DNA of 22,119 nt from a virus, in the IMG/VR virus record IMGVR_UViG_3300017517_000006, positions 1 to 22,119 of that record; one strand, 5' to 3'. This document shows, piece by piece, positions 20 to 12,114 of this stretch. The notes beneath the pieces were generated by a model. It made no database searches. It was not told the origin of the DNA and saw only the letters and a program-made list of their open reading frames with translations. Made by a program: the position numbers and the translations under genes. Positions within the stretch are counted from its first letter, which is position 1, and every line of letters starts with the position of its first letter.

Positions 20-480
20 TGGGTCTGGACGACGCCGCCGACTGGGTCAAAGGCGCCGACGCGCCGATCCGACGCTGGTTCGAAGACGACACCGGGCGCT
101 ACGCCTTCAAAACCACCATCGACGGAACGGACTACATAGTCGCGGCAAAACAGTATCTTCACGACGGGACCGCCAGCGTGTTCCGCCGGCTGGCCCTGCG
201 CGCCGCCGACACCGACAGCCTGATCCTCTTGTGGGTCGACCAGTCCGGTCGGCGGCTGGTCTTCGACGCCAGCGCGATCCTGTCACACGGCGACGACCGC
301 GCGACGCGGTCCGACGAACGCCAGAACCGACAGGAGCGATGGGTCGACTTCCCCGCCCGCTGGGGCGTGGACCTGGTCGACTACGTGGAGGGCCGGGACA
401 CGCCCACCGACACCGACGACATCAAGCACAGCGACGGCGGCGCGACCAGCCTGGACGACTTCGGGGGTGGGTTCCGGTGA
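19..480 (+). CDS. Hypothetical acidic protein
   Basis: A 153-residue acidic protein that I do not recognise. The ATG overlaps the preceding stop and has a good SD (GGAGGTG). The first two thirds (about residues 1-120) look like one compact alpha/beta domain with alternating hydrophobic strands (YAFKTTIDGTDYIVAA, SLILLWVDQSGRRLVF). The last 30 residues are acidic and Gly-rich and are probably disordered. No Cys, signal peptide or membrane segment is seen. Its stop overlaps the GTG of the next gene, so the two are probably translationally coupled in the same operon as the methyltransferase downstream. No function is proposed. Confidence 0.75.
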   Translation: MGLDDAADWVKGADAPIRRWFEDDTGRYAFKTTIDGTDYIVAAKQYLHDGTASVFRRLALRAADTDSLILLWVDQSGRRLVFDASAILSHGDDRATRSDERQNRQERWVDFPARWGVDLVDYVEGRDTPTDTDDIKHSDGGATSLDDFGGGFR

Positions 481-773
481 AGCGCGACCAGCGCGTTCGG
501 CTCCAGGACCAGGACGACGGCGACCCCGACGACACCGTCTATGTCGCACACTACGACGCCGACGGCGCCAGCGCCCACCAATATCACGAAGCCGGCTGTC
601 GCTACCTGACCCGCGCCCGGAACGGTGGCCGCGAAGACCCCGACCAGATGACCCGGGAGGGCGCGCAACTCCGATGGCTGGCGCCCTGTCGCGCCTGCGT
701 CCTGGGAGACGCCGGGTTCCCGCTGTCCGACACCGAACGCGACAGCGCGCAGAGCGACGCGGGGGAATCCTGA
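477..773 (+). CDS. Small HCCC zinc-motif protein (paralogue of the 2201 gene)
   Basis: A 98-residue protein starting at a GTG that overlaps the previous stop (GTGA), preceded by GGGGGTGGG. The core reads YHEAGCRYL ... MTREGAQLRW ... PCRACVL, giving one His and three Cys in a YHx4C and PCxxC arrangement, which suggests a single zinc site. The same arrangement appears in the 112-residue protein at 2201-2539 (YHEDADC ... MTRADAQAAW ... PCRTCVL), so the two are paralogues lying either side of the methyltransferase. Small Cys-rich proteins are common in haloarchaeal viruses, and nucleic-acid or protein binding is plausible but not shown. A longer upstream reading in this frame overlaps the first gene and was not used. 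Confidence 0.75.
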   Translation: MKRDQRVRLQDQDDGDPDDTVYVAHYDADGASAHQYHEAGCRYLTRARNGGREDPDQMTREGAQLRWLAPCRACVLGDAGFPLSDTERDSAQSDAGES

Positions 774-774
774 C

Positions 775-1392
775 GTGTCCCGACCGAACGACCCCGACAC
801 CGACCCGTTCCCCTACGGCTGGCCCGACGGTGGCGACCTGGACATCGTGGACTCCCCGCCGCCCGCCGCCTACGGCGTGGCGACGCGACCCGCGACCCGC
901 GCGACGCTGGTCAGCGAACTGTCGACCGTCATAAAGCGCCATCAGGACGACTTGTCGAAAGCGACCATCTGCGCCACGCTGGTCGACGTGGCCGATATGA
1001 CCGCCGAACTGTACGGCGTGGAGCGCCGCCCCGTCACGATCCCCGTCGGGGCCGTCGACCAGCGCCCGCGTATGGGTGCGGTGTGGTGGCCCGACGCCGC
1101 CGACCGTGGCGTCCTGACGCCGGTGAACATCGACCTGGCCGAAGGGATCGCTCCCGGCGCCGACGCCGCGCCGGACCGCTTCGAACGGTACGGCCCCGAC
1201 GACCTTCCCAGCACGCCCGAAGACGCCATCCAGCCGACGCTGGAGGCCGCTGTCCTGGACCGTGACGCCCTGGTCCCCGCCGCCGACAGCGTCCCGGATC
1301 CGCGCGACCTGGCCGTCCTGGACCCGTACCGGGGGGAGCGCGACCGAATCACCGGCGACATCTGGACCGGAGCGGGGGACGGCGATGAGTGA
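775..1392 (+). CDS. Hypothetical protein
   Basis: A 205-residue acidic protein, not recognised. The start is a GTG one base after the previous stop, with GGGGGAA upstream as SD. Residues about 40-80 form a probable helical segment (LVSELSTVIKRHQDDLSKATICATLVDVADMTAELYGV), followed by a Pro/Asp-rich strand region and a disordered acidic tail. One Cys, no zinc motif and no membrane helix are present. It overlaps the methyltransferase start by 8 nt, so it belongs to the same operon and may be co-translated with it. Confidence 0.7.
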   Translation: MSRPNDPDTDPFPYGWPDGGDLDIVDSPPPAAYGVATRPATRATLVSELSTVIKRHQDDLSKATICATLVDVADMTAELYGVERRPVTIPVGAVDQRPRMGAVWWPDAADRGVLTPVNIDLAEGIAPGADAAPDRFERYGPDDLPSTPEDAIQPTLEAAVLDRDALVPAADSVPDPRDLAVLDPYRGERDRITGDIWTGAGDGDE

Positions 1393-2002
1393 CGGCGACG
1401 ACGACCGTCCCAGCGCCGACCCCGCGAACGCGGGCGGCTATTCCGACGAAAAGCGGGCGCTGTTCACGTCCGCCCGGACCGACACCGGGACCGACGAATA
1501 CGGAACGCCCCGGCGACTGTGGGAACCGATAGCGCGCGCCTGCGGGTCCGACCAGTTCGACCTGGACCCCTGCGCCCGCCAGCGTGACGGCCCCATCGGA
1601 CAGACGTGTCTCACAGACGCCGACGACGGCCTGGCGCACGACTGGCACGGCGACGTATGGGTAAACCCGCCGTTCAGCGACGCCGGGGAGTGGGCGCGCT
1701 ACGCCCGGGACCAGGCCCAGCGGGACGCCGTCGACCGCGTGTTCCTTCTGCTCCCGAACCGGAGCGACACGTCCTACTACCACGACGTGATCGACCAGGT
1801 CAGCCTGAAGGCCGAAGTCGGCCCCGAACCCGTGTCGTTCGACGGCGCCGACGCGAACGCGCCGTTTCCCGTGATCATCCTCCTGTTCGGCCCACCGAAC
1901 GACGACATCCGCGCCGCCTTCGACCGCCTGGGCGCCGTGCTGGAACCCGTCACAGACATCCGCCCTACACAGACCGACCTGGGGGACTTCGACCGTGACT
2001 GA
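1385..2002 (+). CDS. Phage-type DNA N6-adenine methyltransferase (Dam family)
   Basis: A 205-residue protein that should transfer a methyl group from S-adenosylmethionine to adenine N6 in DNA. Family signatures of the phage Dam group (PF05869 type) are readable in order: EYGTPRRLW at residues 38-46, FDLDPCA at 58-64, DDGL at 80-83, then W.GDVWVNPPFS at about 87-98, where NPPF is the catalytic (D/N)PP(Y/F) motif. A hydrophobic strand FLLLPNRSDT follows. The length suits this short family, which has no separate target-recognition domain. The ATG at 1385 was preferred over an earlier in-frame start because it fits the operon overlap and the family N-terminus. Likely roles are protection from host restriction or marking of viral DNA. 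The recognition site cannot be read from sequence. Confidence 0.9.
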   Translation: MSDGDDDRPSADPANAGGYSDEKRALFTSARTDTGTDEYGTPRRLWEPIARACGSDQFDLDPCARQRDGPIGQTCLTDADDGLAHDWHGDVWVNPPFSDAGEWARYARDQAQRDAVDRVFLLLPNRSDTSYYHDVIDQVSLKAEVGPEPVSFDGADANAPFPVIILLFGPPNDDIRAAFDRLGAVLEPVTDIRPTQTDLGDFDRD

Positions 2003-2201
2003 CCCGAACACCGTCCTGACCGTCGACATCGACGCCATCCAGGACGCCGTCGAAGCCCTGGACGACGCTGACGTGGCTGTAACCGACGTAGAGCGCGTCC
2101 AGGCCGAAGACGACGGCCATATCACCTTCGACCTGTCCTGTCGCGCAGAGCGGCGCACAGCCGACGTGACGGACTTCAGCACCGACGGGGGTGACGGCTG
2201 A
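1995..2201 (+). CDS. Small acidic hypothetical protein
   Basis: A 68-residue protein that starts at GTG 1995, overlapping the methyltransferase stop by 8 nt, with GGGGGA upstream. The predicted pattern is a beta-helix-beta fold: TVDIDAIQDAVEALDDADVAVTDVERV then HITFDLSCR. It is very acidic, with a single Cys and no recognisable motif. Its stop overlaps the ATG of the zinc-motif gene at 2201 (TGATG). The tight overlaps on both sides argue that it is a real gene. Function unknown. Confidence 0.65.
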   Translation: MTDPNTVLTVDIDAIQDAVEALDDADVAVTDVERVQAEDDGHITFDLSCRAERRTADVTDFSTDGGDG

Positions 2202-2539
2202 TGCGCCGCCAGGAGCGCGTCGCCCGCCAGGAGCGCGACGAAGGCGACGCCCAGGACACCGTCTACCTGCCGGAGAACCCCCGCGGGAGCGGGAAAGGCG
2301 AAGCGTACCACGAAGACGCCGACTGTCCCCAGCGCCAGGGCGCCAGAGACGACGGCGTTCAAGAGATGACCCGCGCCGACGCACAGGCCGCCTGGTTCAC
2401 CCCCTGCCGGACCTGCGTCCTGGACGACGTGGACCGCCGGAACCCCGCGCCCGACGACGACCCGACCGACGCCCGGACCGGCGCCCTGGAGGACCTGGAC
2501 CCGTCCGACCTGGGGCTGACTGACACCGGAGCGCGCTGA
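2201..2539 (+). CDS. Small HCCC zinc-motif protein (paralogue of the 477 gene)
   Basis: A 112-residue protein with an ATG overlapping the previous stop and a GGGGGTG SD. The N-terminal 20 residues are Arg/Glu-rich. The core carries YHEDADC, then MTRADAQAAW, then FTPCRTCVLDD, so one His and three Cys form a probable zinc site. The order, spacing and flanking words (DTVY before, AQ..W in the middle, PCR.CVL at the end) match the 98-residue protein at 477-773, which marks a gene duplication. The tail (about residues 80-112) is acidic and probably disordered. It may act as a small DNA- or protein-binding factor, but its function is not known. Confidence 0.75.
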   Translation: MRRQERVARQERDEGDAQDTVYLPENPRGSGKGEAYHEDADCPQRQGARDDGVQEMTRADAQAAWFTPCRTCVLDDVDRRNPAPDDDPTDARTGALEDLDPSDLGLTDTGAR

Positions 2540-2706
2540 TGTGGGTCACCGAACGGCTCACGTCGCTACTCTACGGCGCCGCGTCCGGCGCCGCCATCGT
2601 CGCCCTGTCCGACCTGCCACCCACGACCATCCTGGCGCTGACGTGGACCGCCGGCCTGGCGACCGAACTATACCGCGGCTGGCGCTACGGGGACGACGAC
2701 CCGTGA
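2539..2706 (+). CDS. Small two-helix membrane protein
   Basis: A 55-residue ORF from an ATG that overlaps the preceding stop (TGATG) to TGA at 2704-2706. It contains two hydrophobic stretches, about residues 7-24 (LTSLLYGAASGAAIVALS) and 27-44 (PPTTILALTWTAGLATEL), separated by a short Asp/Pro turn, and ends with a charged tail. This looks like a helical hairpin in the membrane. The overlap with genes on both sides supports it. A holin-like or envelope role is conceivable, but the sequence gives no specific family. Confidence 0.65.
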   Translation: MWVTERLTSLLYGAASGAAIVALSDLPPTTILALTWTAGLATELYRGWRYGDDDP

Positions 2707-2918
2707 CCACGCTGACCGCCGCCGACCTGGCCGACGCCCACCCCGAACTTCCGGACGGCTGGCGCCGGTCGATGGTCCAGGTGAAACGACGGGGTGGTCC
2801 CTGGGCCTGCGGGACCTGCGGCGCCGCCAGCCTCCTGTGCTACCGCTGTTCGAAGTGTGGCCGCGACCTGGCGACCGACACGAACACGAACGCCGGACGC
2901 GGCCCGACCGGCGGCTGA
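2703..2918 (+). CDS. Small zinc-ribbon protein
   Basis: A 71-residue protein starting at a GTG that overlaps the previous stop (GTGA). The second half holds WACGTCG and, 11 residues on, CYRCSKCG, so two CxxC knuckles (with an extra Cys) form a typical zinc ribbon. The N-terminal part (LTAADLADAHPELPDGWRRSMVQVKRRGGP) is more basic than its neighbours, which could suit nucleic-acid contact. It is the last gene of the first operon, followed by a repeat-rich noncoding gap. Exact function unknown. Confidence 0.7.
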   Translation: MTTLTAADLADAHPELPDGWRRSMVQVKRRGGPWACGTCGAASLLCYRCSKCGRDLATDTNTNAGRGPTGG

Positions 2919-2920
2919 CG

Positions 2921-2955
2921 CGACGACCGACGACCGACGACCGACGACCGACGAC
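2921..2955 (+). repeat. Five perfect tandem copies of a 7-bp unit
   Basis: The unit CGACGAC is repeated five times without a mismatch in the gap after the zinc-ribbon gene. It starts 3 nt after the stop codon and is outside any supported gene. It could be a replication-slippage microsatellite or a protein-binding array. Confidence 0.85.
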
Positions 2956-2976
2956 CCGCTCCACCGGGGACAGATG

Positions 2977-3018
2977 GCACGCTCCGCGTGCTGTCGAACC
3001 CGGTGGGGCGCCTTTTTT
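2977..3018 (+). terminator. Hairpin plus T-run, probable transcription terminator
   Basis: GCACGC-TCC-GCGTGC (2977-2991) is a perfect 6-bp stem with a 3-nt loop. A T6 run follows at 3013-3018 directly after GGCGCC. Archaeal RNA polymerase terminates mainly at T-runs, and this one lies between the end of the first operon and the packaging operon. The hairpin is 21 nt from the T-run, so the two elements may be unrelated. Confidence 0.45.
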
Positions 3019-3055
3019 CATCGCTCCCCGCGCCGACGCGCCGACCAGCCGGGGA

Positions 3056-3066
3056 CCTAACAGCCT
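3056..3066 (+). promoter_or_regulatory. Probable promoter of the packaging operon (class A, CTAACAG)
   Basis: CTAACAG at 3057-3063 has its TAA about 28 nt before the ATG at 3086. That is where an archaeal TATA element would sit for a leaderless transcript. The same heptamer occurs at the same distance before the gene at 13490. The gap upstream has no genes, so a promoter is needed here. Confidence 0.45.
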
Positions 3067-3085
3067 GGGACGAAAACAGCGGCGT

Positions 3086-3877
3086 ATGGCTCCCGATGGC
3101 GGGGACGACAGCGGCGACAGAGACGACCAGGACGACCAGCGGCTCCCGGAGGGCCACCCGGCGCACGCCATCCAGAACAGCGACGGGGAGTGGGTGTGTG
3201 GCCGGGAGACGGCGAACACGGCGGACGTGTGTCAAATGCCGGTCGACGGACCCGCCGAAGTCTGTCACGTTCATCCCGTGGACGGGTCCGGGCCACCGGA
3301 CGGCCACGGGAGCGCGCCCCAGGACCACGGACGGAACGTCGGTGACACGTCGAACCTGGACCTGGCGCCTGACCGCCCGGGCTTCAAGCACGGCCTGTCA
3401 ATCGTGGAAGACGAACCGACGGGCGTGCTGGAGTGGATACGCGACCACGATCAGGCGGGCCACGCCTGGGTCCGTGCGAAGTACGACGGCTATCTGGACG
3501 TGGCGGACTTCGGACGCGACGACGCCCGCGCCGACGACATCCTTCACGCGGTCCTGATGTTCTATTGTGTCCGCCAGGCGCGAAAGCGCCAGGTCGAACG
3601 CGGGCTTTCGGAGGTAATGACCGTCACGACAGACACCGGGACAGCCGAAGTCGAAGCGGAGATCCCCGTGAACCTCCCCGCGAACAGGATCGCCCGCGAA
3701 GCGCGCCGGATGCTGTCCGACCACGATGTCTTCGGGAGCGACGACGGCGGGGACGGGTCCGACGCCGACTGGGTGGCCGCGGCGAAGCGCCGCGCCGACG
3801 CACAGGGCCAGACGGGCGCAGACGACGACGTGATAGACGTGAACTATCGGGACGACCCAGACACCACAGACAAATGA
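3086..3877 (+). CDS. terS: Probable terminase small subunit
   Basis: A 263-residue protein and the first gene of the packaging operon, three genes before the large terminase, so a role in recognising viral DNA for packaging is likely. Residues about 25-60 carry a Cys/His pattern (W.CGRETANTADVCQMPV...EVCHVHPVDGSGPPDG), then HGRN and FKHGL. This resembles the N-terminal C..C..H.HGG.. patterns seen in phage and haloviral small terminases. The middle (HAVLMFYCVRQARKRQVERGL, NRIAREARRMLSD) is helical and could be the DNA-binding/oligomerisation part. The ATG at 3086 was preferred to an earlier in-frame start at 2837 because it follows the CTAACAG promoter and avoids crossing the terminator region. 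The assignment rests mainly on position and is not certain. Confidence 0.6.
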   Translation: MAPDGGDDSGDRDDQDDQRLPEGHPAHAIQNSDGEWVCGRETANTADVCQMPVDGPAEVCHVHPVDGSGPPDGHGSAPQDHGRNVGDTSNLDLAPDRPGFKHGLSIVEDEPTGVLEWIRDHDQAGHAWVRAKYDGYLDVADFGRDDARADDILHAVLMFYCVRQARKRQVERGLSEVMTVTTDTGTAEVEAEIPVNLPANRIAREARRMLSDHDVFGSDDGGDGSDADWVAAAKRRADAQGQTGADDDVIDVNYRDDPDTTDK

Positions 3878-3969
3878 ACGACCACAGCGCGCCACACAGC
3901 GGCGCACAGCGACGACGGCAGACGCACAGGACCAGGACCAGGACCAGGACCGGGAGCGCCGACCGATGA
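3874..3969 (+). CDS. Basic micro-ORF with Arg-Thr repeat
   Basis: A 31-residue ORF that exactly bridges the gap between the small terminase and the resolvase. Its ATG overlaps the upstream stop (ATGA at 3874) and its own stop overlaps the downstream ATG (ATGA at 3966). The peptide is Arg-rich with an RTRTRTRT stretch, so it is strongly basic among acidic neighbours. The repeat comes from four CAGGAC hexamers (3927-3950). It could be a real DNA-binding peptide, or simply a coupling ORF that keeps ribosomes moving between the two genes. The double overlap is the main argument that it is translated. Confidence 0.4.
   Translation: MNDHSAPHSGAQRRRQTHRTRTRTRTGSADR
3927..3950 (+). repeat. Four tandem CAGGAC hexamers
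   Basis: Four perfect copies of CAGGAC in the short gap between the small terminase and the resolvase. A second run of the same hexamer (three perfect, one CAGGAT) is at 11479-11502 inside another gene, where it encodes an Asp-Gln repeat. Confidence 0.8.
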
Positions 3970-4517
3970 ACGGGTCGCAAATGGAGCGCGACCTGATTCA
4001 CGTCCTGCGCGACCACGGGTGGTCGGCTATGCGGTCGCCCGGGAGCGGAACCGGCGACTGGCCGATGCCGGACGTGGTCGCGGCGAAGTGGGGATATACG
4101 GCGACCGTCGAACTGAAGTCCGGCGACCCGCCGGGGAACGTCTTTCCGCAGGAGATCGACGCCCTGCGCCAGTTCAGCGCCGGGTTTTGGGCGGTCCCGT
4201 TCATCGGCGCGCGCTACTCCGGCGAACGGACCTTCTACCTGGTCCGCCCGGACGACCTGGGGCGGACCGGGAGCGCGCGGGCGTCGATCCCACGCGACGG
4301 GACGCTCCTGGAGCGCGCGCTGTGTCTCCCCTACGGCAAAGGCGCCGACGGCGTCAGCGCCGGGGACCAGTTCGTTCAGGACCCGGACCGCGACGCGGAG
4401 ACGCTGGTTCAGGCCGTGGCCGCTGACCAGTTCGACATCCAGCGCGACGACCCTGCGGCCCGCCCGCCGGGCCTGGACGGCGCTGTCGACAGCGACGCGG
4501 GGGACAGCGATGGGTGA
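3966..4517 (+). CDS. hjc: Archaeal-type Holliday junction resolvase (Hjc family)
   Basis: A 183-residue nuclease that should cut four-way DNA junctions symmetrically. The N-terminal 100 residues show the Hjc signature: MERDL with the first acidic ligand E7, GWSAMRSPGSG (17-28), PMPDVVA with D36, VELKSG with E49 and K51 (the ExK motif), then QEIDALRQFS and FIGARYSGERTFYLV. All expected catalytic residues are present. The C-terminal 80 residues are an extra acidic tail beyond the usual Hjc length of about 120-140. The gene is coupled to its neighbours and sits between the small and large terminases. This suggests it clears branches from replicating DNA before packaging, as T7 gp3 or T4 gp49 do in bacteriophages. 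Confidence 0.88.
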   Translation: MNGSQMERDLIHVLRDHGWSAMRSPGSGTGDWPMPDVVAAKWGYTATVELKSGDPPGNVFPQEIDALRQFSAGFWAVPFIGARYSGERTFYLVRPDDLGRTGSARASIPRDGTLLERALCLPYGKGADGVSAGDQFVQDPDRDAETLVQAVAADQFDIQRDDPAARPPGLDGAVDSDAGDSDG

Positions 4518-4974
4518 CGGCGACCCGGACCCGGACGCGGACGGGTCCGACGACAGGCCCGACGGCTGGACCGACCGACACGACAGGGCGGAACTCCACA
4601 GGGCCGCCAGACGGATCCGACGGCGACGGCGGCGCCAGCGGCAGGCCGACGCCGACGACGCCGACAGCGTGGCGTCTGCGTCGCTCCCGGCTCCGCTCCG
4701 CGAACGCGCGCAGACCGACGGCGGCGACCGCGACCGACTGGAGCCGACGGGCTGTCCACACGGCTCCTGTCGTGGGACGCTCCAGGACACACCCGCGGCG
4801 CCGAACGTGTGGGCGTGTGACACCTGCGGCGACTGGGTTATGCGCGCGACCAGCGACACGGACGGGGACGACAGCGACGGGGACGACAGCGACGGGGACG
4901 GGTCCGGCGACGTGATGGCCGCCTGGAGCGACGACAGCGACCCCACACACAGCGCGCGGGTGGGTCGACGGTGA
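4510..4974 (+). CDS. Zinc-ribbon protein with basic N-terminal patch
   Basis: A 154-residue protein, ATG at 4510 overlapping the resolvase stop, with GGGGGA upstream. It has three parts: an Asp-rich start with an unusual basic block RRIRRRRRRQRQ at about residues 35-46, a zinc ribbon GCPHGSC ... WACDTCG at about 81-107, and an acidic repeat DGDDSDGDDSDGDG near the C-terminus encoded by a 15-bp DNA repeat (4861-4900). Alternating basic and acidic low-complexity regions around a zinc ribbon suggest nucleic-acid binding. Its position directly before the large terminase suggests a packaging accessory role, but that is inference. Confidence 0.7.
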   Translation: MGDGDPDPDADGSDDRPDGWTDRHDRAELHRAARRIRRRRRRQRQADADDADSVASASLPAPLRERAQTDGGDRDRLEPTGCPHGSCRGTLQDTPAAPNVWACDTCGDWVMRATSDTDGDDSDGDDSDGDGSGDVMAAWSDDSDPTHSARVGRR

Positions 4975-6590
4975 CGCCACCGGGCGACGCCGGCGCCGGC
5001 GACAGCACCGACTGGGACCCGTCAGAAGCGGACCTGGCGCGGCTCCAGGACCGCTACGCAGACGACCCGGCGGCGTTTTTCACGGACGCCGGCTTCGACC
5101 TGGCCGACACGCAGGTCCGGATGCTGAACGCCGTCCAGACCCACGACAGGATCCTGGTCCAGTCAGGGAACGGGACGGGGAAGACCGCCGGCGCGATGCT
5201 GGCGGTCTACTGGTTCGTCCTGCTCCGGTACAACGCCCTGGGGCTAGTCACGTCGGGGAACTACGGCGTCCTGAACGACACGGCGTGGCCGTTCCTCCAG
5301 ACGGTTCACCGGCGCTGTCAGGCCGCATACCCAGCGATCCCTGCGGAGCCAAAACAGTCACCGCCGCGCCTGGACATCCCGGGCGCTCCGGAGTGGTTCG
5401 TCCGGTTCCGGTCCCCGACCTACGCAGAGAACCTGGAGGGCCGCCACGCGCGGCGGGCTATCGTGGTCATCGATGAAGCCGATAAGCGGGACGTGACGGC
5501 GTCGCACTTCGACAGCGCCACGTCGACAGCGTCCAGCGACGACGACGTGGTCATCGCCATAGCGAACCCGCCGGAGACGAAGTCGAACGTCGTCTACGAT
5601 AAGTTACGGTCGGACCGCTGGGAGACGGTTCAGTTCAGTTCGTTCGACAGCCACAACTGTCGGATCGACACCGGGGACCTGTCCGCGGACGACCCGCGCG
5701 GGCGGATCCCCGGCCTGGTCGACCTGGACTTAGTCGTGGAAGATTACGAAGCGTGGAACGGCTATCCGTGGCCGGGCGTGGAGGCGGCGCGGTCGGCGGT
5801 GGGCGTCGAAGACGGTCAGCCGGTCGCGCGCCCGGACCACCATCGGGACTTAGACCCGCGGTGGTACAGAAAGCGCCTGGGGGTCATCCCGCCACAGGGC
5901 GGCGGTGTCCTGCGCCCGTGGTATGAACAGGACGTAGACGACGCTGTGGAGCGGTACAGGGCGCTTCAGGACGACGGACGGGTCCGGGCCAGCGTCCGCG
6001 GCGCAGAAGTCGCGCAGGTCGGGACCGACATCGCCCGCGACGGCGGCGACCGGACCGTCAGCGTCGCGCGGCTGGCTAGCCCCGACCGCCTGCGCGTCCT
6101 GGTCGACACCCGCCCCGGCGACCACGAACGGAACCACGACATCTTACGCGACGCCGACGACAGCGTGGACAGACGCGGCCCGTGGCCGGTCGACGCGAAC
6201 GGCGAAGGGTCTGGCGTGGCCGACCGCCTGCGCGCCCGCAGGAGCGGCGTCAGGCGCTTTGACGGCGGAAAGAACGCACAGAACGACGACGACTGGTATA
6301 ACCGCGCCAGCGAAGCCTACGCGGCGCTGGGCCGGTGGCTGAAGGACGGCGGCGCGGTCCCGCCGAACAGCGACCTGGAGCGTGAACTACGGGCCGGGGC
6401 GCGGGTGCTGACGATGAACGAACGACAGTTACGCGGCGGGACGACCCTGCGCGTCGACGGCAAAGACGACCTGAAAAACGCCGAATACCTGGGGCGCTCC
6501 CCGGACGTGCTGGACGCGGCGGCGCTGGCGTGCGACGACGCCTACCAGTCCGATTATCAGGACGTGGACCTGTCCGGGGTGGTCGGCTGA
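4971..6590 (+). CDS. terL: Terminase large subunit (packaging ATPase and nuclease)
   Basis: A 539-residue packaging motor. It starts at a GTG overlapping the previous stop (GTGA). ATPase domain: adenine-binding Q48 region (DTQVRMLNAV), Walker A SGNGTGKT at 65-72, Walker B IVVIDEAD at 164-171, coupling motif IAIANP at 195-200. Nuclease domain (RNase H fold): GTDIARDGGD at 351-360 with first acidic D353, VDANGEGSGVADRL at 407-420 with D408, and SPDVLDAAALA at 510-520 with D512. This is the complete two-domain layout, and the length is normal for the family. It translocates viral DNA into the prohead through the portal encoded by the next large gene. It overlaps the next small gene at TGATG. Confidence 0.95.
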   Translation: MTPPGDAGAGDSTDWDPSEADLARLQDRYADDPAAFFTDAGFDLADTQVRMLNAVQTHDRILVQSGNGTGKTAGAMLAVYWFVLLRYNALGLVTSGNYGVLNDTAWPFLQTVHRRCQAAYPAIPAEPKQSPPRLDIPGAPEWFVRFRSPTYAENLEGRHARRAIVVIDEADKRDVTASHFDSATSTASSDDDVVIAIANPPETKSNVVYDKLRSDRWETVQFSSFDSHNCRIDTGDLSADDPRGRIPGLVDLDLVVEDYEAWNGYPWPGVEAARSAVGVEDGQPVARPDHHRDLDPRWYRKRLGVIPPQGGGVLRPWYEQDVDDAVERYRALQDDGRVRASVRGAEVAQVGTDIARDGGDRTVSVARLASPDRLRVLVDTRPGDHERNHDILRDADDSVDRRGPWPVDANGEGSGVADRLRARRSGVRRFDGGKNAQNDDDWYNRASEAYAALGRWLKDGGAVPPNSDLERELRAGARVLTMNERQLRGGTTLRVDGKDDLKNAEYLGRSPDVLDAAALACDDAYQSDYQDVDLSGVVG

Positions 6591-6829: not shown

Positions 6830-9800
6830 ATGGACCCGGCAGACCCCGGCGACGCCGCCGACGACGCCGACGGCGAACTGGCCGGTACGGCGCCGACGGC
6901 GGGAGACGGACAGGGAACGGACGGGTCCGGCCTTCCGGTCGTCCTATCGGAAGACCTGGTCGAACAGGCCCGCGCCGAAGGCGTGGACGTAGAGCGGCTG
7001 AAGGACGCGGCGGTCCCGGACGCGCCGGTAAACGTGGGCGTGGATGTGGACCTGACGGCGAACACGCACACGGACGGGTCCGCCACGGTCCCGGTCCAGG
7101 ACCACCGGAAGACGGACCTGACGAACCGCCTGCGACGCGACACCGACCTTCAGTTCATCCAGGACGACCAGGTCCGGCGCCTGATCGACCAGGGCGTGAA
7201 CTATACCGAACGGATCGGCCAGTTCTTACTGTCCAGAGACGACCTAATCCCGACGGTCAAAGAGCGGCTGAAGTCGCTGATCACAGGCGAAACCGGGATG
7301 ATGGTCGAACCCGCCGACGCCGATAGCGACGCCGACCAGCGGCTGGCCGACCACCTGTCCGCGAAGTACGACAGCCGCGTCCGCCCGTCGGAAGTGATCG
7401 ACCGGATCCTCGGGGAGAACCTGATGAACGCGCGGGCGGTCCTGCGGTCGACCGACCTGAAGGAACTGGACTTAGCGGAACTGGACTACCTCCGCGACGG
7501 CGTCACCGGGGAGGAAATATACGTCCAGGACCGGGCGACAGTCTACACCTTCGACGTGGACGACCCGGACGCGGACGGGGACGGGTCCGACGCGACCACC
7601 GACGACAGCGCGCTTCAGACTGGCGACACGGCGCAGGACGCGCTGACGGGGATCGACCTGGAGCGGGAGACGGTCGACGCACAGCCGCTAGTGATCGGGG
7701 ACCACGTCTTCGACATCAGTCTGTACGACACGCCGCCGCTGGAGGCCGTGGCCGACACGGCGGTCAATAAAATGGTCCTTCAGCGGCTGAAGGCGCGGAA
7801 GGCGGAGATCACATCCTTCGGCGCTGTGTACGCGACGGTGGCGCCGCCGTCCTACCTTCCCGAAGACCAATACTTCGACCGCGTCCAGGACGACGACTTC
7901 GACGGCGACGGACAGCCGCCGACAAAACTGGAGCGTGCGATGCGCCAGAACATCCAGAACGCCTTTGACACGCTGAAGGACTTTCAGTCGGGGACGGTTA
8001 TGTCGGTCCCGGACTTCTGGGAACTTGAACAGTTAGACATCCCGGAGACGGGCCAGCCGCTGGACGACCAGATACGCGGGTATAACCGCGACATCAGCCG
8101 GCGGCTCCTGGTCCCGCTGGACCTGATCGAACTTCAGAGCGGGTCCGAACTGTCGCGCGAAACCATGTTCCGGACGCTAATGACCACTATCGCCGGCTGG
8201 CGGCGGGAGATCGTCCGGATCTTCGACCAGTTCGCACAGGTCCAGGCGGAGATTCACGATATAGACGGGGAGGTGGAACACAGGTTCCCGCCGCTGAAGG
8301 ACGCAGAGACGAAACAGGTCATCAGCGCGCTTCAGTACGCCGGCGTGGCGGGGCTGTCCCAGCCCGAAGTCCGGCAGATGCTGAACACGGTCCAGGGGGT
8401 CGACCTGGAGACGGACCCCGACAGCGGGCCGGACGGGTCCGACACACCGCTCCCGCCGCAGGGCGGGCCGGAGGCCCCGGACGACCGGAGCGACCAAATG
8501 CGGGAGATGCTGGACGACCAGCGCCGGGGCGAAGGGTCGCCCTACGGCGGTGGCGACGACGGCGACGACAGCGGTGGCGGCGCGGAGACGTTCGACAGCG
8601 AACAGGCCGCCCGGGAGCGCGCCGACGAACTGGGGTGTCAGGGCGCCCACCAAATGGAAAACGGCGACTGGATGCCGTGTGACAGCCACGACAGTTACCA
8701 GCGGGTCAGCGGCGCACAGGCCACAGACGGCGCTGACAGCGCCACAGCGCGCGTCGCGGACCAGCGGGTGGCGACGGCGCAGGACGACAGCGACGTGGAC
8801 CTGACGGTTCCTGACGCGGCGCAGAACGCCGCACAGGACGCCCTGGACGCACGCGACGACCCAGACGTGACGGTCGACGGGATGACCGACGTGGGGTGGA
8901 GCCGCGCCGAAACGCTGGCCGACGGCGGCGAACTGGACCCAGGTGACATCGTCGGGTCGACCGACGCGATGGCGAACTGGTGGGCGCGACACGCCGACCA
9001 CACGCTGGACACGTCCGGCGACCAGACGACCCTGGACGCGCCGGACGACGGGAACCCGTGGGCCGACGCCAGTTATACCGCGGGGAAGGGCTGGGGCGGC
9101 GTGGCCGGCGCGCGCTTTGCCTGGTCGAAGGCGGCGGCGCTGACGGACGCGGAGAACTGGCGCGACCACCTGGACCGACTGGAGGCCGCTTCAGCGGCGA
9201 CACAGCGCGTCCTGGACAGCGCGCCGATGCTCCCCGACGCGGGCGCCGGCGACGACGTGACGCTGTCGGCGCCGGTCCTGAAGACGTGGCTGGCGTGGTC
9301 GATGGCCGACGGGGAGCGCGTGGCCGCGTTCGACCCGGCGCTCCACCCACGCGGTGATGACGGCCAGTTCGTGGAGCGTCCGTATGACATCCCGGACGGC
9401 GCCCGCGACCGGATCCGCGACCTGTCGACCGCGGAGACGCTTCAGGAGCTAGTCCGGACGGACGGGTCCGGCCTGGACGACGACGGGCTTCAGACGCTCC
9501 TGGACGACGACAGCGTCAGCATCGACGGCGTGGACGCCGACAGCGTGGCTGACCTGGGAGACGGACAGGACGACACGGACACCGACACCGACACGGACGG
9601 GGCGCCGGGCGCGTCCTGGTCGACGCCAGACGCTGGCGACCTGCGCCCGGACGAAGCGGAGACGGTCGAACCGCTGGCGTCCGACCCGGACGCGAAGTCG
9701 GGATCGGCGGCGCAAAATATGGAGATCGCACGGTTCGAAGACGGGCGAACCGGGTTCGTGAAGCGGTTTCGGGCCGACCGCGACGGGCCGCGGTCTGACG

Positions 9801-10135
9801 GCGAAAAGCCGACGCTGGCCGAACGCGAAGTCGCGGCGGACACGTTCATCGCGGAGTGTGTCGACCGCGACCCCGACGCCGACCGGCTGACGACGGCGGA
9901 CGCCCACCGCCGGTACGCCGCGTGGTGTCGGGAGAACGGCCTGGACCCCGTCGGCCAGCGGGAGTTCACGAACACGCTGAAGGACGAAGACGTCGGCTAC
10001 AAGTCCGGCGTCCGGATCGACGGGAAGTCCCAGCGCGGCTACAAGGCCCTGGGGCTGTCCGACGACGTCCCCGACCTGGACGACACACCGGAGCGGGCCA
10101 GCCCCGACGACGCCCGCCAGGACAGTCTGTTCTGA
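6830..10135 (+). CDS. Giant portal protein with C-terminal fusion modules
   Basis: An 1101-residue protein, about twice the usual portal length. Residues about 90-560 are the portal: helical N-terminus (RLIDQGVNYTERIGQFLL), beta region, and a typical wing/stem motif NRDISRRLLVPLDLIEL at about 418-434. It should form the dodecameric DNA entry vertex. Four additions follow. First, a GCQGAH...PCDSHDSY cassette (602-622) known from phage head proteins. Second, a VGWSRAETLADG ... GWGGVAGARFAW domain (688-762), also phage-associated. Third, the linker motif HPRGDDGQF at about 839. Fourth, a domain at 1000-1085 (TFIAECV, TTADAHRRYAAWCRENGL, REFTNTLKDE, RGYKALGL) that matches the pattern of the D5/P4-type primase C-terminal DNA-binding domain. 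Acidic linkers separate the modules. The portal call is firm; the last domain is pattern recognition only. Confidence 0.85.
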   Translation: MDPADPGDAADDADGELAGTAPTAGDGQGTDGSGLPVVLSEDLVEQARAEGVDVERLKDAAVPDAPVNVGVDVDLTANTHTDGSATVPVQDHRKTDLTNRLRRDTDLQFIQDDQVRRLIDQGVNYTERIGQFLLSRDDLIPTVKERLKSLITGETGMMVEPADADSDADQRLADHLSAKYDSRVRPSEVIDRILGENLMNARAVLRSTDLKELDLAELDYLRDGVTGEEIYVQDRATVYTFDVDDPDADGDGSDATTDDSALQTGDTAQDALTGIDLERETVDAQPLVIGDHVFDISLYDTPPLEAVADTAVNKMVLQRLKARKAEITSFGAVYATVAPPSYLPEDQYFDRVQDDDFDGDGQPPTKLERAMRQNIQNAFDTLKDFQSGTVMSVPDFWELEQLDIPETGQPLDDQIRGYNRDISRRLLVPLDLIELQSGSELSRETMFRTLMTTIAGWRREIVRIFDQFAQVQAEIHDIDGEVEHRFPPLKDAETKQVISALQYAGVAGLSQPEVRQMLNTVQGVDLETDPDSGPDGSDTPLPPQGGPEAPDDRSDQMREMLDDQRRGEGSPYGGGDDGDDSGGGAETFDSEQAARERADELGCQGAHQMENGDWMPCDSHDSYQRVSGAQATDGADSATARVADQRVATAQDDSDVDLTVPDAAQNAAQDALDARDDPDVTVDGMTDVGWSRAETLADGGELDPGDIVGSTDAMANWWARHADHTLDTSGDQTTLDAPDDGNPWADASYTAGKGWGGVAGARFAWSKAAALTDAENWRDHLDRLEAASAATQRVLDSAPMLPDAGAGDDVTLSAPVLKTWLAWSMADGERVAAFDPALHPRGDDGQFVERPYDIPDGARDRIRDLSTAETLQELVRTDGSGLDDDGLQTLLDDDSVSIDGVDADSVADLGDGQDDTDTDTDTDGAPGASWSTPDAGDLRPDEAETVEPLASDPDAKSGSAAQNMEIARFEDGRTGFVKRFRADRDGPRSDGEKPTLAEREVAADTFIAECVDRDPDADRLTTADAHRRYAAWCRENGLDPVGQREFTNTLKDEDVGYKSGVRIDGKSQRGYKALGLSDDVPDLDDTPERASPDDARQDSLF

Positions 10136-10171
10136 CGCGGTCGGCCACACCGTCCACGTTCGCGGCCCCAC

Positions 10172-10188
10172 CGTCCACACTTCTCCGG
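10172..10188 (+). repeat. 17-bp direct repeat, copy 1
   Basis: CGTCCACACTTCTCCGG is identical to 10385-10401, 213 bp apart. It extends the iteron CGTCCACA by a shared CTTCTCCGG flank. Confidence 0.85.
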
Positions 10189-10265
10189 CTACCGACACAC
10201 CACAGACAGCGGGTAGCGTCCGTGACGCCGCCGAACCGGGTTCTATACCTCACAGGGCCGACAGA

Positions 10266-10284
10266 TGTGGACGATGTGGACGGT
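10266..10284 (+). repeat. Paired 9-bp iterons, left arm of a 19-bp inverted repeat
   Basis: TGTGGACGATGTGGACGGT consists of two 9-bp units in tandem. It is the exact reverse complement of 10374-10392. The arms are separated by 89 bp of comparatively AT-rich sequence. Confidence 0.85.
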
Positions 10285-10330
10285 GGGTCCGCAAAAGTCG
10301 CGTTTGGCAGCTGGATTTCTATCAGATACC

Positions 10331-10340
10331 ACATATAAAG
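10331..10340 (-). promoter_or_regulatory. Candidate TATA box inside the noncoding region
   Basis: ACATATAAAG on the + strand reads CTTTATATGT on the - strand, close to the archaeal box A (TTTATA). It lies almost in the centre of the inverted iterons. A minus-strand transcript from here would run antisense towards the portal 3' end. It could equally be just the DNA-unwinding part of an origin. Confidence 0.3.
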
Positions 10341-10373
10341 CCGGATGTGTAGAAAAGAAAGATGCCGGGGGGG

Positions 10374-10401
10374 ACCGTCCACATCGTCCACACTTCTCCG
10401 G
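10374..10401 (+). repeat. Paired iterons, right arm, overlapping 17-bp direct repeat copy 2
   Basis: 10374-10392 (ACCGTCCACATCGTCCACA) is the reverse complement of the left arm at 10266-10284. 10385-10401 is the second copy of the 17-bp direct repeat at 10172-10188. Confidence 0.85.
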
Positions 10402-10500
10402 ACTGTGATAGGTCCGGGCGGACCAGGCCGGCGGGACGACGTCGATCCACACCGGCGCGGCGGTCGGCGTGACCACGTCCGCGACCGCGGGGGAACTGAA

Positions 10501-10518
10501 GCGGGCCGTGTGGCCCGC
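10501..10518 (+). repeat. Hairpin with 7-bp perfect stem
   Basis: GCGGGCC-GTGT-GGCCCGC is a perfect inverted repeat with a 4-nt loop. No T-run follows, so it is not a typical terminator. It may be an operator or RNA structure. Confidence 0.6.
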
Positions 10519-10572
10519 AATCCGATGGTGGAGACGGGACGGCTTGAAACCTCAGGTGTGGCAGAAACCCAG

Positions 10573-10586
10573 CAGACCGCGGTCTG
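10573..10586 (+). repeat. 14-bp perfect palindrome
   Basis: CAGACCGCGGTCTG is fully self-complementary and lies 82 nt before the RHH start codon. A dimeric regulator could bind it. Confidence 0.7.
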
Positions 10587-10609
10587 AACGCGGCGCAGGG
10601 TCCCCCCCG

Positions 10610-10639
10610 CCATCGCGTCACGGTGGTTCAATAACCACC
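10610..10639 (+). promoter_or_regulatory. Promoter and operator of the RHH gene (class B box plus inverted repeat)
   Basis: 10610-10628 repeats the 19-bp box found before the portal gene exactly and starts 58 nt before the ATG at 10668. Its 3' end forms an inverted repeat GGTGGTT-CAAT-AACCACC (10622-10639) that includes an AT-rich TTCAATAA about 34-41 nt before the ATG, so TATA and operator would overlap. This arrangement suits autoregulation by the RHH protein. Confidence 0.55.
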
Positions 10640-10667
10640 CATTCCATCGCCTATACGGAGTAGAAAG

Positions 10668-10847
10668 ATGAGTGAAGGCCAGAACGAACCGTTGAACCGA
10701 AGCGTGAAGATCACGCCGTCGACCCACACCGCGCTGAAGCGCGCGCGACGTGGCGACATGACGATGGACGACGTCATCGCGGACGCCCTGCGCGACTACG
10801 AACCGTACAATCCCGACCCTGCCGTCGTGCTGGACGACGACGTGTGA
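10668..10847 (+). CDS. Ribbon-helix-helix (CopG/VapB-like) DNA-binding protein
   Basis: A 59-residue protein with ATG at 10668. Residues about 10-44 (NRSVKITPSTHTALKRARRGDMTMDDVIADALRDYEP) show the ribbon-helix-helix layout: a short beta strand with alternating basic/polar residues (RSVKI), helix A (STHTALKRAR), a turn with Gly, then helix B (TMDDVIADALRDY). A short acidic tail follows. Such proteins bind palindromic operators as dimers; here inverted repeats lie immediately upstream (10573-10586 and 10622-10639). It may repress its own operon or the class B promoters. An antitoxin role is possible in this family, but no toxin-like partner is recognisable downstream. Confidence 0.8.
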   Translation: MSEGQNEPLNRSVKITPSTHTALKRARRGDMTMDDVIADALRDYEPYNPDPAVVLDDDV

Positions 10848-10849
10848 TT

Positions 10850-11176
10850 ATGACCGGCGACATCACCCACACCCGTGTTCAGGCCGCCGAACAGCTGCTG
10901 AACGGGCGCGAACGCATCGCCGCGAAGGAACAGGACGTGTCCGTCGTCCAGGCCGCCCGCGACCAGTACGGGGCCGACGCCCTGGCCGCCGTCGAAACCG
11001 CGCTGGATCCGGACGACGACCGTGTCAAACTGACTCACAGCGTTCTAGCCGCCATCCGCGACGGCGACGACCTGGACAGCATCACCGCTGGCGCGACCGA
11101 CGTGGACGGGCGCGTCTACCGGCTCCACGGCGTCGCCGCCGACGACCACGGGCTGGCGGGCCGGGAGGGGCTGTGA
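10850..11176 (+). CDS. Hypothetical protein, paralogue of the next gene's N-terminus
   Basis: A 108-residue protein. The ATG at 10850 was chosen; an in-frame GTG at 10844 overlaps the RHH stop and would add two residues. Residues about 10-75 (RVQAAEQLLNGRERIAAKEQDVSVVQAARDQYG...VKLTHSVLAAIRDGDD) align by eye with residues about 8-78 of the 11179 protein (KTLLGGRGRIKAKAHGLTPVQAARRWYG...VELTDDLLAAIRDGDD). It is therefore a tandem partial duplication. The shared unit is helical with a conserved VQAARxxYG core. No catalytic motif is seen. It lies in the same operon as the RHH and MuF genes. Function unknown. Confidence 0.7.
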   Translation: MTGDITHTRVQAAEQLLNGRERIAAKEQDVSVVQAARDQYGADALAAVETALDPDDDRVKLTHSVLAAIRDGDDLDSITAGATDVDGRVYRLHGVAADDHGLAGREGL

Positions 11177-11178
11177 CC

Positions 11179-12114
11179 ATGTCGACACCCAGCGACGACC
11201 ACGACCTGGACGCCGTCCGCGAACAGGCGGCAAAAACGCTCCTAGGGGGGCGTGGCCGGATCAAGGCGAAGGCGCACGGGCTGACGCCCGTCCAGGCCGC
11301 CCGCCGCTGGTACGGCGACGACACCCTGGACACTATCGGAGCGACGCTGGAGCAGGACCACGTCGAACTCACCGACGACCTGCTGGCGGCTATTCGGGAC
11401 GGCGACGACGGGGAGATCGACATCGACCTGGACCAGGTCCTAGCCGACGCCCGCGCCGCCGCAGGCCGCGCCGACGACCAGGACCAGGACCAGGATCAGG
11501 ACGGGTTCGGCGGCGGCGAACGCCGGAACCCGAACCCGCCGGACACGTCCCGACCGCACGAAAACGACACGTTCGGGACGCGCGACCCGGAGGCGCCGGC
11601 GACCCGGGCGTCAGCGTCGGCGGAGTACGCCGAAGGTGACAAAGTCGACGTGGACGGGTCCGACGCGGTGGTGGTCGAAGTCTGGACCGACGGCGAACAC
11701 GAAGGCCCCGACGGGGAGATGTACGAACCGACCGACGACAGCCCGGTCTACGTGGTCGGAACGCAGGACGGCGCCGAAGCCGTCAGCGGGTCGGACGTGT
11801 CCGCGTCCGACTGGGGGTCAGACGTGGACAGCCCGGACCAGTCGCTGGCCGACAGCGTGGCGGGCGACGCCGAAGCCGGGCGCCTGGAGGCCAGCCCGTT
11901 CGACTTCGACATCCCCGACAGTTGGGAGGAAAGCGAAACGCCGAACCGGCTGATCCTTCTGGACGCCTGGGCCGGTATGGGCGGCCAGTTCGACTGTGGC
12001 GGTGGGTGCTGTAAAGGAACGATGATGTCGTCGGGGATGGGAGATCGGGCGTCAGACCGCTTCTGCGCGGCTATGAAGGACCGCGTCCTGATGTGGGAGG
12101 GGTGGCGCGGATAA
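11179..12114 (+). CDS. Hypothetical protein with duplicated N-terminal unit and Cys-rich C-terminus
   Basis: A 311-residue protein. The ATG at 11179 has GGGAGGGG 8 nt upstream; an in-frame GTG at 11173 is too close to that SD. Three parts: residues about 1-80 are paralogous to the preceding gene, residues about 95-245 are acidic low-complexity including a DQDQDQDQD run and a small beta region (DKVDVDGSDAVVVEVWTDGE...SPVYVVG), and the last 50 residues are conserved-looking: AGMGGQFDCGGGCCKGTMM ... RFCAAMKDRVLMWEGWRG. The four Cys suggest a metal site, and the FCA..KDRVL...WRG ending resembles short motifs in phage structural proteins. The gene lies between RHH and MuF, so a head or injection role is possible but unproven. 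Confidence 0.7.
   Translation: MSTPSDDHDLDAVREQAAKTLLGGRGRIKAKAHGLTPVQAARRWYGDDTLDTIGATLEQDHVELTDDLLAAIRDGDDGEIDIDLDQVLADARAAAGRADDQDQDQDQDGFGGGERRNPNPPDTSRPHENDTFGTRDPEAPATRASASAEYAEGDKVDVDGSDAVVVEVWTDGEHEGPDGEMYEPTDDSPVYVVGTQDGAEAVSGSDVSASDWGSDVDSPDQSLADSVAGDAEAGRLEASPFDFDIPDSWEESETPNRLILLDAWAGMGGQFDCGGGCCKGTMMSSGMGDRASDRFCAAMKDRVLMWEGWRG
11479..11502 (+). repeat. Four CAGGAC-type hexamers (one variant)
   Basis: CAGGAC x2, CAGGAT, CAGGAC in tandem, encoding an Asp-Gln repeat in frame. It is the same hexamer as the noncoding or micro-ORF run at 3927-3950. Confidence 0.75.

What the first reader, a model, noticed from the sequence alone, without database searches (positions are those of the whole stretch)
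10136..10667. Iteron-bearing noncoding locus inside the structural module
Six copies of CGTCCACA/TGTGGACG occur at 10151, 10172, 10266, 10275, 10376 and 10385 (the 10151 copy ends in G). Copies 3-4 and 5-6 are 9-bp tandem pairs, forming a perfect 19-bp inverted repeat (10266-10284 and 10374-10392) around an AT-richer core with ATATAAAG. The arrangement resembles iteron origins, partition sites or multi-site operators, and it sits next to an RHH gene. A noncoding stretch of 532 bp is exceptional in this compact genome.
Basis: partly seen in the sequence, partly recalled or inferred. Interest (0 to 1): 0.75.

Follow-up and report, generated by a model that had tools for sequence, protein, structure and literature searches.

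The report
Captured replication origin inside virus head genes
A salt-loving archaeal virus carries, in the middle of its head-building genes, a copied replication start site together with the DNA-reading end of the replication protein that recognises such sites, now fused to the virus's portal protein; this shows how viruses mix replication and particle-building parts, and the paired repeats offer a clear signature for finding such start sites across archaea and bacteria.

Summary
The repeats are real and correctly placed. They match, site for site, a layout found directly after P4/D5-type primase-helicase genes in haloarchaea: two single sites, then a 9-bp tandem pair, then the same pair inverted, around an AT-richer core. 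The repeat word differs between elements (CGTCCACA here, CGACTACA in Salinibaculum, GCACCACA in another), but all six copies change together. Inverted 9-bp tandem pairs occurred after the gene in 7 of 34 regions, against 0 of 2040 shuffles and 0 of 86 control regions. The link is physical: the last 100 codons of the 1101-codon portal ORF, ending 15 bp before the first site, encode the primase's C-terminal winged-helix domain (60% identical to its nearest relative). So about 570 bp (primase gene end plus origin) were captured in frame into the portal gene of an HHTV-1-like tailed virus. Eleven related viruses lack it. The element is of the same kind as the P4 crr and the SaPI/PICI and pRN1 origins. 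Whether it still fires, and what a portal carrying an origin-binding domain does, are untested; no full-length primase is in the 22-kb contig.

The parts
6830..8578 (+). portal core (residues 1-583 of the 1101-aa ORF 6830-10135)
   Evidence: 41% identical to HHTV-1 gp12 and 60-70% to portal ORFs of viral contigs L102-L104
9287..9634 (+). conserved linker/docking segment (FDPALHPRGDDGQFVERPYDIP...) that in related viruses precedes variable C-terminal cargo domains
   Evidence: tblastn to L101-L112 cargo ORFs
9833..10129 (+). C-terminal winged-helix origin-binding domain of a P4/D5-type primase-helicase, fused in frame to the portal ORF (stop codon 10133-10135)
   Evidence: PF03288 and phrog_1156 hits; 60% identity over 100 aa to the C-terminus of haloarchaeal primase L154; AlphaFold winged helix with fold matches to RFX DBD, AsfvPrimPol and Orc1
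10151..10158 (+). iteron 1 (single site, CGTCCACG)
10172..10179 (+). iteron 2 (single site, CGTCCACA followed by CTTCTCCGG)
10266..10273 (-). iteron 3 (left tandem pair)
10275..10282 (-). iteron 4 (left tandem pair, 9 bp from iteron 3)
10285..10373 (.). core between the inverted iteron pairs, 50% G+C in a 69% G+C contig; AT-richest 25 nt at 10315-10339 (24% G+C), candidate unwinding element
10376..10383 (+). iteron 5 (right tandem pair)
10385..10392 (+). iteron 6 (right tandem pair, 9 bp from iteron 5)
10250..10408 (.). whole inverted-repeat element, 35-nt arms
   Evidence: single-strand DNA fold z = -6.9
10349..10398 (.). block conserved at nucleotide level with the origin downstream of the L119 primase (GTAGAAAAGAAAGATGCCGGGGGGGA + iteron pair + ACTTCTC)
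   Evidence: local alignment score 48 against at most 27 in 200 shuffles
10265..10317 (.). block conserved with the Salinibaculum origin L117 (left iteron pair + CGCRAAAGTCGCGT + GCTGGNTT)
   Evidence: score 31 against at most 24 in 200 shuffles
10622..10639 (.). 18-bp palindrome GGTGGTTCAATAACCACC just upstream of the RHH-like gene; possible operator, not part of the origin
10668..10847 (+). 59-aa RHH-like protein gene; not part of the captured element as far as can be shown
   Evidence: codon usage is coding; no relative found; fold inconclusive
11173..12114 (+). ORF whose residues 147-312 match HHTV-1 gp12 residues 680-851: the downstream part of a portal ORF that is continuous in HHTV-1 lies on the other side of the locus
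   Evidence: 53% identity

Best explanation
The locus is a P4/SaPI/pRN1-type iteron origin of replication. It was captured, together with the last ~100 codons of its own primase-helicase gene, as one ~570-bp segment (about 9833-10400) into the variable cargo region of the portal gene of a haloarchaeal tailed virus. In its source replicon, the C-terminal winged helix of the primase-helicase binds the six sites, loads the SF3 helicase between the two inverted 9-bp-spaced pairs and melts the AT-richer core. Shown here: homology of the winged-helix domain, homology and identical layout of the sites, co-variation of site words between elements, in-frame fusion to the portal, absence from related viruses. 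Inferred: that the domain binds these sites, and that the element is or was an active origin. In this virus it most likely persists as a recombinant origin usable only if a full-length cognate primase is supplied, by the unseen part of the genome or by a co-resident element, or as a recent remnant.
For: Residues 1002-1100 of the portal ORF match the extreme C-terminus of haloarchaeal P4/D5 primases (Pfam Pox_D5, phrog_1156 DNA primase; 52-60% identity), with a predicted winged-helix fold. Directly after the stop of those primase genes the same six-site layout occurs. Positions after the stop: window 16+,37+,132-,141-,241+,250+; L117 21+,40+,92-,101-,196+,205+; L119 26+,46+,140-,149-,266+,275+. 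The site words differ (CGTCCACA, CGACTACA, GCACCACA), but within each element the copies agree (one final-base mismatch in the window), including the single sites that no hairpin explains. Perfect inverted repeats of 11 nt or more are in 43% of 30 downstream regions, 1.4% of shuffles and 3.5% of control regions. Inverted 9-bp tandem pairs are in 7 of 34 regions, 0 of 2040 shuffles and 0 of 86 controls. Nucleotide homology with two of these origins exceeds all 200 shuffles. P4 crr lies directly 3' of the alpha gene, with TGTTCAC(C/A) sites, a 9-bp-spaced pair and opposed sets. In PICIs the region just 3' of rep is the origin, with two iteron sets flanking an AT-rich region, and it drives replication (PMC6092414).
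Against: No full-length primase-helicase is in the 22-kb contig, and six related records lack Pox_D5 and DUF5906 matches. GC skew shows no switch at the locus. For pRN1, the authors saw no specific binding of the replication protein to the corresponding region (PMC4234260), so direct site recognition is not proven for that relative. About half of the haloarchaeal primase genes surveyed show no clear inverted sites downstream. No replication or binding data exist for this virus.
Confidence: 0.86

Rival explanations
1. Active main origin of this virus: the virus has its own P4/D5-type primase elsewhere in its genome, and this is where its replication starts.
For: All six sites and the symmetry are intact. 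In haloarchaeal provirus L154 and in VapE phages such as L081, a primase/helicase-origin-terminase order is found, so this origin type does serve tailed viruses next to packaging genes.
Against: None of the six related virus records searched with PF03288 and PF19263 has such a primase; there is no skew switch; the rest of the genome is unseen.
Confidence: 0.3
2. Non-functional remnant of a recombination with another replicon; the winged helix is a passive tail on the portal.
For: Absent from all related viruses; sits in a segment where related viruses carry unrelated cargo domains.
Against: The perfect 19-bp symmetry, five of six exact sites and an intact ORF with genome-typical codon usage argue for recency or continued use.
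Confidence: 0.4
3. Stem-loop (cruciform) origin recognised by shape rather than by sequence, as proposed for pRN1.
For: The strand folds into a long hairpin (z = -6.9); [quoted passage not shown]
Against: The two single sites outside the stem change word together with the stem in L117, L118, L119 and the window. Each pRN1 arm is itself a 9-bp tandem repeat, TGTCCAtagTGTCCAact.
Confidence: 0.12
4. Multi-site operator of the adjacent RHH-like regulator, or a partition site.
For: A gene of DNA-binding type starts 260 nt downstream, and there is a TATA-like sequence in the core.
Against: The element keeps its layout next to primase genes, and no relative of this RHH gene was found; the RHH-like gene has its own palindrome at 10622-10639; no ParA/ParB among the ORFs scanned.
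Confidence: 0.05
5. Terminal inverted repeats of a small transposable element (MITE-like).
For: 35-nt inverted arms around ~90 nt.
Against: No other copies in phage or plasmid records; no target duplication seen by eye; the six-site layout recurs with different words after primase genes.
Confidence: 0.02

Closest known systems
SaPI/PICI replication origin (region 3' of rep; two iteron sets flanking an AT-rich region; PMC6092414)
   Same: Position directly after the Rep C-terminus coding end, oppositely oriented iteron sets, AT-richer centre, element-specific site words
   Different: Archaeal virus; only the origin-binding domain is present, fused to a portal protein; no full Rep in the contig; activity untested
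Phage P4 crr and ori1 type-1 repeats with alpha protein
   Same: crr lies directly 3' of alpha; 8-bp sites (TGTTCAC[CA]) with a 9-bp-spaced tandem pair and opposed orientations; alpha binds the repeats through a DNA-binding domain
   Different: P4 has two 120-bp crr copies plus a distant ori1; different primase type
pRN1 origin of Sulfolobus (3' of orf904; PMC4234260)
   Same: Archaeal; inverted arms of 21 nt around 58 nt directly after a P4-family primase gene; arms are 9-bp tandem repeats; winged helix at the protein C-terminus
   Different: Described as a stem-loop without iterons; no single sites noted; no specific binding seen in vitro
ICP1 origin-directed nuclease Odn (PMC8263062)
   Same: A virus carries the origin-binding domain of a foreign replicon fused to another protein
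   Different: Odn uses a RepA_N domain on a nuclease that destroys a satellite origin; here the partner is a portal protein and the origin itself came along

Membership tests
P4/SaPI-type iteron origin | directly 3' of the coding end of the cognate Rep/primase origin-binding domain | tested here: met
   winged-helix coding region ends at 10135, first site at 10151
P4/SaPI-type iteron origin | two sets of short iterons in opposite orientation | tested here: met
   pairs 10266/10275(-) and 10376/10385(+)
P4/SaPI-type iteron origin | AT-rich region between the sets | tested here: met
   core 50% G+C in a 69% G+C contig; 25 nt at 24% G+C
P4/SaPI-type iteron origin | homologous elements after full-length primase genes with the same layout | tested here: met
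   L117, L118, L119
P4/SaPI-type iteron origin | full-length cognate SF3 helicase in the same replicon | tested here: inconclusive
   absent from the 22-kb contig, but the contig is a fragment
P4/SaPI-type iteron origin | drives autonomous replication; bound by Rep | not testable with these tools
   needs bench work
P4/D5-type C-terminal winged helix (Pox_D5) | profile match and winged-helix fold | tested here: met
   PF03288 above its cut-off, phrog_1156 1.2e-8, AlphaFold core pLDDT about 90, fold matches (best fold E 1.8e-3)
RHH operator | sites travel with the RHH gene | tested here: not met
   layout recurs without relatives of this RHH gene
ParB/parS partition site | ParA/ParB genes adjacent | tested here: not met
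   no such hits among the ORFs scanned
Orc1/Cdc6 ORB origin of haloarchaea | ORB motifs and orc1/cdc6 gene | not tested
   no motif scan was run; the sites do not look like ORBs as recalled

The most novel reading that the evidence does not exclude
The portal-fused origin-binding domain is functional: a virion (portal) protein that recognises replication origins of P4/D5-type replicons, either recruiting its own origin-bearing genome to the portal or occupying and blocking the origins of competing satellites or plasmids. The cis origin would be its binding platform or a by-product of the capture.
Probability: 0.12. Interest if true: 0.88.

Novelty: new variant of a known kind. Interest (0 to 1): 0.66.

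Why it matters
It extends P4/SaPI-type origins, located by a simple rule (just after the primase gene, inverted 9-bp tandem pairs whose word differs per element), to haloarchaea, and suggests that the pRN1 'stem-loop' origin is the same kind of site array. That makes origin prediction and origin/initiator specificity testable across many archaeal viruses and integrated elements. It is also a clear case of a replication initiator's DNA-binding end and its origin being moved as a unit into a virion-protein gene.

Tried and rejected
Exact 17-mer scan of viral contigs: 96 hits, mostly single and scattered, but it also led to VapE phages with the same kind of site array. Exact 17-mer in 391 haloarchaeal genomes: six single hits, none in a multi-site cluster, so the same site word was not found at another origin. 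TerL, RHH and pre-domain segment searches in viral contigs found no relatives. Blastn of the locus to phages and plasmids gave only chance hits. Rfam and tRNA searches: nothing. Hidden coding sequence: codon scores negative or near zero in all frames across 10136-10667, no significant Pfam hits. A leaderless micro-ORF at 10362 was considered and dropped (codon score -0.05). Assembly chimera: unlikely, because virus genes flank the segment on both sides, the ORF stays open across the junction and both flanks match HHTV-1-type genes, but it was not testable with reads. GC skew: no switch. RHH fold: inconclusive. Loci on the minus strand had to be turned before analysis.

Full report
OBSERVATION. 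None of 500 dinucleotide shuffles of the locus gives an inverted repeat of 19 bp, and the longest elsewhere in the window is 13. The 532-nt gap stands alone (next largest 88 nt) and no frame in it looks coding.

SURROUNDINGS. The window is a 22-kb fragment of a haloarchaeal tailed virus related to HHTV-1. The 1101-aa ORF just upstream is the portal: residues 52-583 are 41% identical to HHTV-1 gp12 and 60-70% to contigs L102-L104. What is the downstream part of the same protein in HHTV-1 lies here in a separate ORF, 11173-12114 (53%). So the whole stretch from about 8.58 to 11.6 kb is an insertion or rearrangement relative to HHTV-1. Related viruses carry large variable cargo ORFs in that place, and none carries the repeats.

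THE KEY LINK. The last 100 residues of the portal ORF match the C-terminal winged-helix domain of P4/D5-type primase-helicases: Pfam Pox_D5, PHROG DNA primase. A haloarchaeal relative, Salinibaculum sp. KK48, has 52% identity at the end of an 872-aa primase. Further relatives reach 60% over 100 aa. The predicted structure is a confident winged helix, closest to RFX and the ASFV PrimPol C-terminus and to Orc1 among solved structures, with modest E-values. In 391 haloarchaeal genomes close matches to this domain sit in long ORFs of primase size (one 60-aa fragment aside), and none of the related viruses has the domain, so the portal fusion is so far unique.

THE ELEMENT. Immediately after the stop codon of those primase genes lies the same element. 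Salinibaculum (L117) and its close relative L118 have two single GACTACA-type sites, then TGTAGTCGATGTAGTCGGG, then its inverse after 77-82 nt. L119 has the same layout with GCACCACA. All six positions correspond to those in the window, and the single sites change word together with the pairs. Around the right pair the window and L119 share a 50-nt block, scoring 48 against at most 27 in 200 shuffles; around the left pair the window and L117 share another, 31 against 24. Across 30 haloarchaeal primase genes, perfect inverted repeats of 11 nt or more occur in 43% of downstream regions, against 1.4% of shuffles and 3.5% of control regions. Inverted 9-bp tandem pairs occur in 7 of 34 regions (the 30, the window, P4, pRN1 and one VapE phage), against 0 of 2040 shuffles and 0 of 86 controls. 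Many of the more distant primases do not show the full layout, so it is a feature of a subgroup, with looser versions elsewhere.

COMPARISON WITH KNOWN SYSTEMS. P4 crr lies directly 3' of alpha with TGTTCAC(C/A) sites, including a 9-bp pair in opposed orientation. PICI origins lie directly 3' of rep, with two iteron sets around an AT-rich region, and drive plasmid replication (PMC6092414). The pRN1 origin is a required stem-loop 3' of its P4-family primase (PMC4234260). That paper says it lacks iterons and saw no specific binding, yet its arms read TGTCCAtagTGTCCAact, a 9-bp tandem. Proteobacterial-type VapE phages (L081 and relatives) have GTCCACAC-type arrays between the helicase and terminase genes. 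I found no paper describing such origins in haloarchaea in the library searched.

MECHANISM. Shown: homology of the domain, homology and layout of the sites, word co-variation, in-frame fusion, absence from relatives. Inferred: recognition of the sites by the domain, helicase loading between the inverted pairs, melting at 10315-10339, and origin activity now or in the source. The simplest history is capture of about 570 bp (primase gene end plus origin) into the portal's variable region. Whether the virus uses it is open: no primase-helicase is in the fragment, related viruses lack the family, and the GC skew does not turn there.

ALTERNATIVES. A pure hairpin does not explain the co-varying single sites. 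An RHH operator or a partition site does not explain the element's recurrence after primase genes. A functional role for the portal-borne domain, in packaging or against competing replicons, is possible, with a loose precedent in the phage nuclease Odn (PMC8263062), but there is no direct evidence for it.

Noticed in passing
L160 (pRN1, NC_001771) 5084-5183: The arms of the pRN1 origin stem-loop are 9-bp tandem repeats (TGTCCAtagTGTCCAact), although the published description says the origin lacks iterons.
   Followed up: partly
L013, L030, L058, L081, L087: VapE-helicase phages have arrays of CGTCCACAC/TGTCCACAC-type sites in the gap between the helicase and terminase small subunit genes, very like the haloarchaeal sites.
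   Followed up: partly
L154 (G248:C175) 90-4739: A haloarchaeal contig has the order P4/D5 primase - six-site origin - small genes - terminase large subunit, so this origin type sits next to packaging genes in a provirus.
   Followed up: partly
L129, L130, L138: A second origin architecture after primase genes: four single sites in alternating orientation (AAAGTGTC; ATCAAGGA) instead of inverted tandem pairs.
   Followed up: no
window 8580-11610: A ~3-kb insertion relative to HHTV-1 splits what is one portal ORF there; related viruses L102 and L103 hold very large ORFs with HExxH (zincin-like) motifs in the same place, a variable cargo hot spot.
   Followed up: partly
window 8591-8689 (portal residues 588-620): A DUF3721 match (1.5e-12) inside the portal extension.
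   Followed up: no
window 10622-10639: Perfect 18-bp palindrome GGTGGTTCAATAACCACC 28 nt before the RHH-like start codon, a likely operator for that gene.
   Followed up: no
window 10844-11176 and 11173-12114: The start of the second ORF looks like a copy of the first (AAxxLLxGRxRIxAKxxxxxxVQAAR), seen by eye.
   Followed up: no
window 1262-2002 and 3966-4517: Dam-type adenine methyltransferase and archaeal Hjc-type resolvase genes precede the terminase gene.
   Followed up: no
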